In this document: piece by piece, positions 40,748-63,217 of the stretch
How the letters are laid out: each line of letters opens with the position of its first letter
Position numbering within the stretch: position 1 is the first letter of the stretch
Assembly: GCA_947501265.1 (NCBI GenBank)
Contig: CANMVY010000012.1
Location: 1 to 64,000, forward strand
DNA from: Bacteroidota bacterium
GTDB taxonomy: Bacteria > Bacteroidota > Bacteroidia > UBA7662 > CANHCV01
Direction: 5' to 3'
Length of the DNA stretch: 64,000 nucleotides
Position numbers and translations under genes: made by a program
Notes under the pieces: model-generated
The model's database searches: none
What the model was told of the DNA's origin: nothing
The model's input: the letters and a program-made list of their open reading frames with translations, nothing else

Positions 40748-40790
40748 CTCCCTTCGAGAACCTCAGGGAGCGGGAGCCTCAGGGAGCGGG
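40748..40790. repeat. REP-like hairpin cluster, left of the GIY-YIG gene
   Basis: Starts with the imperfect hairpin CTCCCTTCGAGAACCTCAGG (through 40770) in which CTCCCT and GAG pair with CTC and AGGGAG. It continues with a second GAGCCTCAGGGAGC unit. Bases 40751-40790 are identical, over 40 bp, to 41225-41264 on the other side of the GIY-YIG gene. A further partial unit (CCTGAGGCCCTCGAAGG) reaches about 40820. Confidence 0.85.
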
Positions 40791-40844
40791 CAATTCTGGT
40801 GCCTGAGGCCCTCGAAGGCACCTCAAAGGACATATATCCCTCAA

Positions 40845-40864
40845 GAAACGTTTATAAACGTTTC
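40845..40864. repeat. 20-bp perfect palindrome
   Basis: GAAACGTTTATAAACGTTTC is its own reverse complement. Its core CGTTTATAAACG recurs at 46692-46731 and 63134-63173, in each case after a REP-like cluster. Here it lies about 55 bp before the GIY-YIG start, upstream of a TATAATTTG box at 40891-40899. Confidence 0.85.
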
Positions 40865-40918
40865 ATTTCAAGCAATCTTCCAAAATTTTGTATAATTTGC
40901 ATCGATTTGAAGGGGTAT

Positions 40919-41197
40919 ATGTATATTTTGGAATGTGCTGATGGAAGTTATTACACCGGTAGCACAAAAAATTTAGAAGTTAGATTGGCTCAACATCAAT
41001 CTGGTTTCGGCGCCAATCACACTAAAAAGAGATTACCCGTTAAATTGGTTTATTATGAAGAATTCCTAAGAATTGATGAGGCTTATTATAGAGAGAAACA
41101 AGTTCAAGGCTGGAATCGAAAAAAGAAGACTGCGATCATTCAGCAAGAAGGAAAGAAACTTCCAGCGCTTTCGATGGCCTACAGAGATTTGGAGTAG
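40919..41197 (+). CDS. Single-domain GIY-YIG nuclease
   Basis: A 92-residue protein that is little more than a GIY-YIG domain. Its start MYILECADGSYYTGSTKNL carries the two motif strands (YIL and YTG), followed by the conserved Arg (about 22) in LEVRLAQHQSG, ANHTKKRLPVKLVYYEEF and the catalytic Glu in EAYYREKQVQGWNRKKK (about 59). A TTG at 40907 would add four residues (LKGY) seen in many relatives. The domain cleaves DNA through a metal-dependent mechanism in homing, repair and mobile-element enzymes. Here the gene is tightly enclosed by REP-like repeats: the palindrome 55 bp upstream and a hairpin 2 bp after the stop. That context suggests a role in repeat movement. Confidence 0.88.
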   Translation: MYILECADGSYYTGSTKNLEVRLAQHQSGFGANHTKKRLPVKLVYYEEFLRIDEAYYREKQVQGWNRKKKTAIIQQEGKKLPALSMAYRDLE

Positions 41198-41199
41198 CT

Positions 41200-41264
41200 C
41201 TCCCTTCGAGAGCCTCAGGGAGCGCCTTCGAGAACCTCAGGGAGCGGGAGCCTCAGGGAGCGGG
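41200..41264. repeat. REP-like hairpin cluster, right of the GIY-YIG gene
   Basis: Begins 2 bp after the GIY-YIG stop with CTCCCTTCGAGAGCCTCAGG (hairpin through 41222). It then gives a 40-bp block (41225-41264) identical to 40751-40790. The cluster fills the space to the stop of the convergent HTH gene and could act as a transcription end for both. Confidence 0.85.
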
Positions 41265-62598: not shown

Positions 62599-63217
62599 GT
62601 TTATTTGGTTAGAAATAAAGATACGGCAAAAAGGATTTTGTTGCGCCCATTGAAATTTTCCTTTGAAAATGACAAAACTGATGTTAGGTGTTTCCGCTGG
62701 GAAATGCCCCTTCGTTTTTCCAACAAGTCGGGATACCGAACTTGTGATCGTATATGGAAAGGATTCCCTTTAACCAGCTGGCCGCTGGAGTTGTTACACC
62801 CGGTCCTCGAGTTTCCGCCAATAGGCGGAAGTATCGAGAGGCCGGCACAGAAATCGGGGTCTCGATACTTTTCTTTCAGAAAAACTCGACCTCCGCGTTG
62901 TTTCACTCATCCTCCGCGTTGTTTCACTCATCCTCCCTGCGAAACGGCTCAGGGAACACCTACCCCTCCTAACAAATGTTAGGTCTCCCTACCTTTTTAG
63001 TTAGGTAATATTCCGTGTAAACAATCATAAAAATCAAGTAAATGTGGGTCCGAAATTTTCGGGATAGTGGACCCACCAACCCCCTCCCTGCCACCCCTCA
63101 ACCTCGGCCAAAAGTACTACAATCCTCTCAGAATATCCGTTTATAAACGTTTATAAACGTTTATAAACGGATAACTCCAAGAAATCAGCAAACCTTTGCA
63201 GCTCAAAGTTTACAACC
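62599..63217. repeat. 619-bp repeat-rich intergenic region upstream of comM
   Basis: No credible gene. Bases 62796-62960 hold REP-like pieces (TCCGCC-AATA-GGCGGA hairpin, CTCGACCTCCGCG shared with 46523-46535, GCTCAGGGA) and a 21-bp unit tandemly repeated twice at 62890-62931. GTGGGTCC (63044-63051) pairs with GGACCCAC (63069-63076). Bases 63134-63173 form a perfect 40-bp palindrome of three TTTATAAACG units with ends TATCCG/CGGATA. It lies 44 bp before the comM start. Confidence 0.8.

What the first reader, a model, noticed from the sequence alone, without database searches (positions are those of the whole stretch)
40748..41264. GIY-YIG nuclease gene enclosed by identical REP-like repeats: a possible nuclease-driven mobile repeat element
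Seen: a 92-residue single-domain GIY-YIG gene is bracketed by GC-rich hairpin repeats. Bases 40751-40790 and 41225-41264 are identical over 40 bp; a hairpin begins 2 bp after the stop codon, and a 20-bp perfect palindrome lies about 55 bp upstream of the start. Known: REP elements in Proteobacteria are flanking substrates of RAYT transposases, and GIY-YIG domains nick DNA in homing systems. Inference: the repeats are the ends recognised by this nuclease, making a compact selfish element whose nuclease-free relatives sit at 46.5 and 62.8 kb. This is the best candidate here for an undescribed system.
Basis: partly seen in the sequence, partly recalled or inferred. Interest (0 to 1): 0.75.

Follow-up and report, generated by a model that had tools for sequence, protein, structure and literature searches.

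The report
Nuclease gene with matching DNA hairpins
A tiny DNA-cutting enzyme gene sits among short DNA hairpins that recur around its relatives in many bacteria, and the enzyme's tail changes in step with the hairpin's tip, so the two look like lock and key in a small horizontally spreading genetic unit.

Summary
A 92-aa GIY-YIG nuclease gene (40919-41197 +) lies between copies of an imperfect hairpin, core CTTCGA-x-NN-x'-CTCAG. The association is not chance. In 80 loci chosen only by protein similarity, the core occurs at 5.1/kb within 100 bp of the gene and about 0.02-0.04/kb beyond 1 kb. Of 73 loci with enough sequence, 46 have hairpins on both sides, against 8 of 2524 control placements. 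The stem covaries strongly. Three hairpin classes (G.NN.C, C.NN.G, C.NNN.G) track the enzyme's C-terminal tail (AYRD, NYT, CxNxS/T) in 84 of 86 cases, so the hairpin is very probably the enzyme's substrate. Gene and hairpins sit in different surroundings in a sister species, are absent from orthologous sites in another genus, and occur patchily across phyla, so they travel together. Whether the nuclease drives that movement is not shown. The arrangement works like REP/RAYT but with an unrelated enzyme. It most resembles the Ssn family of site-specific single-strand GIY-YIG nucleases, which I recall from memory; that paper was not in the library. Verdict: real and interesting; a new variant of a known kind. 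The tail-hairpin code is the part I found no precedent for.

The parts
40748..40770 (+). upstream hairpin, G-class (CTCCC TTCGAG AA CCTCA GGGAG), followed by a half copy to 40790
   Evidence: sequence; 40-bp direct repeat; ssDNA fold with TC bulge
40798..40822 (-). nearest upstream hairpin, inverted, G-class (GGTGCC TTCGAG GG CCTCA GGCACC read on the - strand)
40845..40864 (.). 20-bp perfect palindrome GAAACGTTTATAAACGTTTC; separate dispersed family, possibly an operator or promoter element of the gene
   Evidence: about 27 places in the genome; also beside the genome's second small GIY-YIG gene
40919..41197 (+). 92-aa GIY-YIG nuclease, catalytic residues intact, tail LSMAYRDLE
41200..41222 (+). 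first downstream hairpin, G-class (CTCCC TTCGAG AG CCTCA GGGAG)
41225..41264 (+). second downstream hairpin (G-class, left stem shortened) plus half copy; identical to 40751-40790

Best explanation
The gene encodes a site-specific GIY-YIG nuclease whose substrate is the surrounding hairpin, a short variable stem with a two-base bulge and a conserved CTTCGA-x-NN-x'-CTCAG tip, most probably in the single-stranded (extruded) form. The catalytic domain supplies the cut; the C-terminal tail reads the tip pair x:x' and tip length (AYRD for G:C, NYT for C:G, CxNxS/T for the longer C:G tip). The conserved unpaired C five bases 3' of the core is the best candidate for the scissile end. Nuclease gene plus flanking hairpins form a cassette that is gained, lost and transferred as a unit, leaving dispersed gene-free hairpins behind. 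Shown here: association, hairpin covariation, tail-class correlation, unit-like presence/absence. Inferred: binding, cleavage of single-stranded DNA, and movement by cutting followed by recombination or repair between repeats.
For: Density of the core 5.1/kb within 100 bp of the gene, 0.02-0.04/kb beyond 1 kb, reversed-pattern control zero. Both-side flanking 46/73 loci against 8/2524 control placements, p 5e-71. Stem positions 1-4 complementary in 95, 92, 75 and 65% of 188 distinct copies, z 19 to 11 over shuffles, slid controls fail. x:x' is G:C 120, C:G 62, T:A 5, other 1. C at +5 in 96% of G-class copies and retained when unpaired, 73 of 92 over all classes. Label-driven mutual information peaks at residues 87-90 of the tail. 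Tail against nearest class 35/38, 15/16, 34/38, with two cross-assignments. Loci not used to define the code: 3 of 3 CxN tails beside C5 hairpins, both KNY tails beside C4. A different GIY-YIG subfamily (mostly NPxWxDL tails) has a hairpin at 1 of 13 loci. Nearest hairpins lie inverted around the gene, 53/73 downstream + and 34/52 upstream -, combined p 1e-5. Empty orthologous sites in G165 and G182 against a 583-bp cassette in G124, whose only three exact core copies flank the gene. Genus sister G002 carries the gene with its upstream hairpins in other surroundings, while the window's left flank matches G002 exactly up to the hairpin.
Against: No binding or cleavage was tested. Some genomes hold many copies and no recognisable partner (G036 56 copies, G077 10), and G002 carries mostly C-class copies with only an AYKD-tailed gene of this subfamily. 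Genome-level co-occurrence is modest (20/51 against 16/98, p 0.003). The protein tree is poorly resolved (few columns), so only 1-2 independent class changes are supported by starred branches; shared ancestry could inflate the tail-class correlation, and tail types were defined after seeing the data. No target-site duplication or precise junction seen; empty-site genomes are only about 70-75% identical. Many loci are metagenome-assembled, so some cross-phylum cases may be binning errors.
Confidence: 0.74

Rival explanations
1. Self-mobilising element: the GIY-YIG nuclease acts as the mobility enzyme of a REPtron-like unit, cutting hairpins at source and target so that the cassette is copied by repair, while gene-free hairpins are its non-autonomous offspring. 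(An extension of the best explanation, not exclusive of it.)
For: Inverted flanking pair, empty sites, patchy presence (5 of 21 genomes in the order; 51 of 149 in the class), relatives in several phyla, broken copies and a 23-aa relic still beside hairpins.
Against: No within-genome bursts of near-identical gene copies were seen; no target duplication or excision product; ordinary homologous recombination between repeats plus horizontal transfer would look similar.
Confidence: 0.35
2. Domesticated genome-maintenance or DNA-uptake function like Ssn in Neisseria: the nuclease cuts single-stranded DNA bearing the repeats and so tunes transformation or recombination near them; spread is passive.
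For: Same protein type and same layout, one or few nucleases with dispersed cognate hairpins; catalytic residues kept. Ssn recalled from memory only.
Against: Patchy presence and pseudogene copies suggest a dispensable gene; competence was not examined.
Confidence: 0.4
3. The hairpins are merely transcription terminators or mRNA-stability hairpins and the gene is an unrelated neighbour.
For: Hairpins lie just after stop codons (median 39 bp beyond the aligned gene end).
Against: They also lie upstream on both strands; the tip sequence is conserved far beyond terminator needs; classes track the protein tail; enrichment is specific to this GIY-YIG subfamily.
Confidence: 0.03
4. Shared ancestry alone: both hairpin class and tail are inherited with the host lineage, with no physical interaction between tail and tip.
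For: Class clusters on the protein tree (18 changes against 42 shuffled) and deep forks are unresolved.
Against: One MAG (C4.bin.5) carries AYRD/G-class (L077) and CxN/C5 (L140) genes. G039's two genes lie beside G- and C-class hairpins respectively. Chryseobacterium has both pairings.
Confidence: 0.15

Closest known systems
Ssn family of site-specific single-stranded GIY-YIG nucleases (Neisseria Ssn with NTS repeats; Chenal et al. 2025, recalled from memory, paper not held)
   Same: Small GIY-YIG protein with a cognate, dispersed repeat.
   Different: Different repeat superfamily (CTTCGA/CTCAG tip with bulge), mainly Bacteroidota; tail-to-tip correspondence and cassette-like gain and loss described here. 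Whether that paper covers this clade could not be checked.
REP/RAYT elements (REPtrons) (PMC2817692, PMC3733652)
   Same: Extragenic imperfect hairpins, an unpaired conserved base at one end, one nuclease gene flanked by inverted hairpins, dispersed gene-free copies.
   Different: The enzyme is GIY-YIG, not a tyrosine HUH transposase; no GTAG tag; fewer copies (about 27).
CGTC-tagged REPs, reported to lack a dedicated transposase and to include Neisseria dRS3 (PMC3733652)
   Same: Hairpin with an unpaired tag and tail; occur in Bacteroidetes among other phyla.
   Different: Sequence differs. In Sinorhizobium a distant GIY-YIG gene (36% identical) has a different palindromic repeat on both sides, hinting that GIY-YIG nucleases may be partners of other repeat families too.
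UPF0213 proteins BH0048 (1zg2) and EF2693 (1ywl)
   Same: Closest solved structures by sequence; 1zg2 also by fold.
   Different: Structural-genomics entries without a known substrate; the match stops before the recognition tail.

Membership tests
GIY-YIG nuclease (PF01541) | Domain score above cut-off and conserved catalytic residues | tested here: met
   63.6 bits against 22.6; Y2, Y12, R22, H26, E59 conserved at 98-100% in 114 relatives
Ssn-type nuclease | Cognate repeats dispersed in the genome and around the gene | tested here: met
Ssn-type nuclease | Groups with Neisseria Ssn on a tree | not tested
Ssn-type nuclease | Cuts only single-stranded DNA at the repeat | not testable with these tools
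   needs biochemistry
Ssn-type nuclease | Effect on natural transformation | not testable with these tools
   needs genetics
REP/RAYT element | HUH tyrosine transposase | tested here: not met
   enclosed gene is GIY-YIG only
[quoted passage not shown]
   46 of 73 loci flanked on both sides, inverted bias p 1e-5; window nearest pair is - and +
REP/RAYT element | GTAG-type unpaired head | tested here: not met
   conserved unpaired base is C at +5, no GTAG
REP/RAYT element | Extragenic, high copy number | tested here: inconclusive
   10/26 copies overlap mechanical ORFs against 72% background; about 27 copies, below the >100 usual for REPs (PMC2817692)
Intron- or intein-borne GIY-YIG homing endonuclease | Gene inside an intron or intein of a host gene | tested here: not met
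   gene is intergenic between a TonB-receptor-like and an HTH gene
Insertion sequence | Target-site duplication at insertion | tested here: inconclusive
   empty sites too divergent to read the junction

The most novel reading that the evidence does not exclude
A widespread class of mobile cassettes in which a 92-aa GIY-YIG nuclease, rather than a transposase, mobilises hairpin repeats, with target choice set by a short C-terminal tail that reads the hairpin's tip pair, so that new specificities arise by tail change; GIY-YIG nucleases may likewise be the missing partners of other REP families.
Probability: 0.3. Interest if true: 0.85.

Novelty: new variant of a known kind. Interest (0 to 1): 0.62.

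Why it matters
If true, it gives very common, unnamed hairpin repeats of Bacteroidota a dedicated enzyme, offers a second enzyme class for REP-like elements besides RAYTs, and supplies a testable residue-to-base code for sequence-specific cutting of DNA hairpins by a 92-aa protein. It also makes testable the open question of what partners REP families lacking a transposase (PMC3733652).

Tried and rejected
Literature searches for the Ssn paper, for UPF0213/COG2827 work and for the repeat sequences themselves found no description of this repeat. Known RNA family: only a sub-threshold tmRNA match, rejected. Plasmid carriage of the cassette: no DNA match; phage relatives only below 60% identity. 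Independent-contrast test of tail and class: too few supported branches to be decisive. CGTC-tagged hairpins beside proteobacterial GIY-YIG genes: no clear CGTC REP found, but Sinorhizobium genes carry a different palindromic repeat on both sides; Sphingomonas paeninsulae and Cupriavidus genes showed none of the hairpin classes. The two UvrC-type GIY-YIG hits of this genome (C24, C26) were set aside. Genes with a KKKF tail have no clearly assigned hairpin class.

Full report
Observation. The gene at 40919-41197 (+) encodes 92 aa with a single GIY-YIG domain. It is surrounded by copies of one imperfect palindrome: 40748-40770 (+), 40798-40822 (-), 41200-41222 (+) and 41225-41244 (+), the outer stretches being identical over 40 bp. 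The core is more frequent than in shuffled sequence and occurs at 26 places genome-wide at up to two mismatches against one for a reversed control. The genome has one other small GIY-YIG gene, at the start of contig C3, and two UvrC-type hits.

The repeat. Searching three genomes of the genus with four free positions in the tip gave 76 or so listed copies, all with complementary letters at the first and last free position. Across 188 distinct copies from 61 loci the stem outside the core is complementary at positions 1-4 far beyond shuffles, and sliding one side destroys it. So the unit is a stem of almost any sequence, a TC bulge and a conserved tip. As single-stranded DNA the G-class folds accordingly; the C-classes form the outer stem. 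One asymmetric feature, a C five bases 3' of the core, is kept even when unpaired (p 1e-13); it faces outward on both sides of the gene where the nearest hairpins are inverted.

Association. Eighty loci were fetched by protein similarity alone from 84,980 species. Core density falls from 5.1/kb within 100 bp to 0.15/kb at 0.5-1 kb and about 0.02-0.04/kb beyond 1 kb; the reversed pattern never occurs. Both flanks carry hairpins in 46 of 73 loci against 8 of 2524 control placements. The nearest downstream hairpin is + in 53 of 73 and the nearest upstream - in 34 of 52. Of thirteen loci of a different GIY-YIG subfamily only one had such a hairpin nearby.

Tail and tip. Hairpins near the genes fall into three main classes: G.NN.C (G4), C.NN.G (C4) and C.NNN.G (C5). 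Class clusters on the protein tree (18 changes against 42 shuffled). Mutual information with class peaks at tail residues 87-90. With the core's sixth base allowed to be A or G, AYRD tails lie nearest G4 in 35 of 38, NYT nearest C4 in 15 of 16 and CxNxS/T nearest C5 in 34 of 38; the only cross-assignments, L103 and L127, also carry a G4 copy. In loci not used to define the types, 3 of 3 CxN tails lie beside C5 and two KNY tails beside C4. Two KRY tails, one old (L161) and one held out (L196), lie beside G4, suggesting Arg for G:C and Asn for C:G at that place; two loci are not proof. Caveats: the tree is weakly resolved and the tail types were named after inspection. Same-genome and same-genus pairs argue against pure ancestry: MAG C4.bin.5 holds an AYRD/G4 gene (L077) and a CxN/C5 gene (L140); G039's two genes lie beside G-class and C-class copies respectively; Chryseobacterium holds both pairings.

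Behaviour as a unit. In sister species G002 the gene (87% identical) keeps its promoter palindrome and upstream hairpin remnants but has other neighbours; G002's copy of the window's left flank matches exactly up to the hairpin and then shows a hairpin array without the gene in the stretch that its contig holds. In another genus, G124 has a 583-bp cassette where G165 and G182 have 31 and 99 bp between the aligned flanks, and G124's three exact cores all flank the gene. Stop-interrupted copies and a 23-aa relic beside G-class hairpins exist. Relatives occur patchily (5 of 21 genomes in the order, 51 of 149 in the class) and in nine phylum-level groups besides Bacteroidota by record title, subject to MAG error.

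Genome level. Genomes with a relative more often hold three or more repeats (20/51 against 16/98, p 0.003), and the three genomes known to have an AYRD gene all hold three or more G-class copies against 3 of 146 others, one of these with the relic. Orphan repeat families do exist (G036, G077).

Structure. An alignment-based model has mean pLDDT 92; the tail is less certain (72-85) but not disordered. The nearest fold is 1zg2, whose sequence match ends before the tail.

Interpretation. The likeliest reading is a site-specific GIY-YIG nuclease cutting its own hairpins in single-stranded form, carried as a cassette. Cleavage and active mobility are inferences. It works like a REPtron with a different enzyme, and is probably a member or close relative of the Ssn group, which I know from memory and could not read here. 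So I file it as a new variant of a known kind.

Noticed in passing
window 40845-40864 and 63145-63162; L002:246-263; L033 around 1871; L035:1813-1837: AAACGTTTATAAACGTTT palindromes (about 27 places in this genome) lie beside both small GIY-YIG genes of this genome and beside the second gene's relatives in two sister species, built from 10-bp units; possibly an operator or a further cognate repeat.
   Followed up: partly
L002:1-230; L035:1849-2170: Tandem copies of about 100-120 bp made of tRNA-like fragments lie next to the second small GIY-YIG gene; a tRNA-Ala gene is called in L033 but none in L002 or L035.
   Followed up: partly
L236, L240 (Sinorhizobium plasmids): A distant GIY-YIG gene (36% identical) is flanked on both sides by a long palindromic intergenic repeat, which may point to other nuclease-repeat pairs.
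   Followed up: partly
L083, L086, L101, L143 and others: Many nuclease reading frames run on through the downstream hairpins, giving recurring peptides such as PEALEG, STSST and FDSAQ; these strings in annotated proteins elsewhere may be translated hairpins.
   Followed up: no
G000 contigs C3 (start), C25 (start): Contig ends fall in or near a GIY-YIG gene or a hairpin copy, suggesting assembly breaks at repeats, so copy numbers are minima.
   Followed up: no
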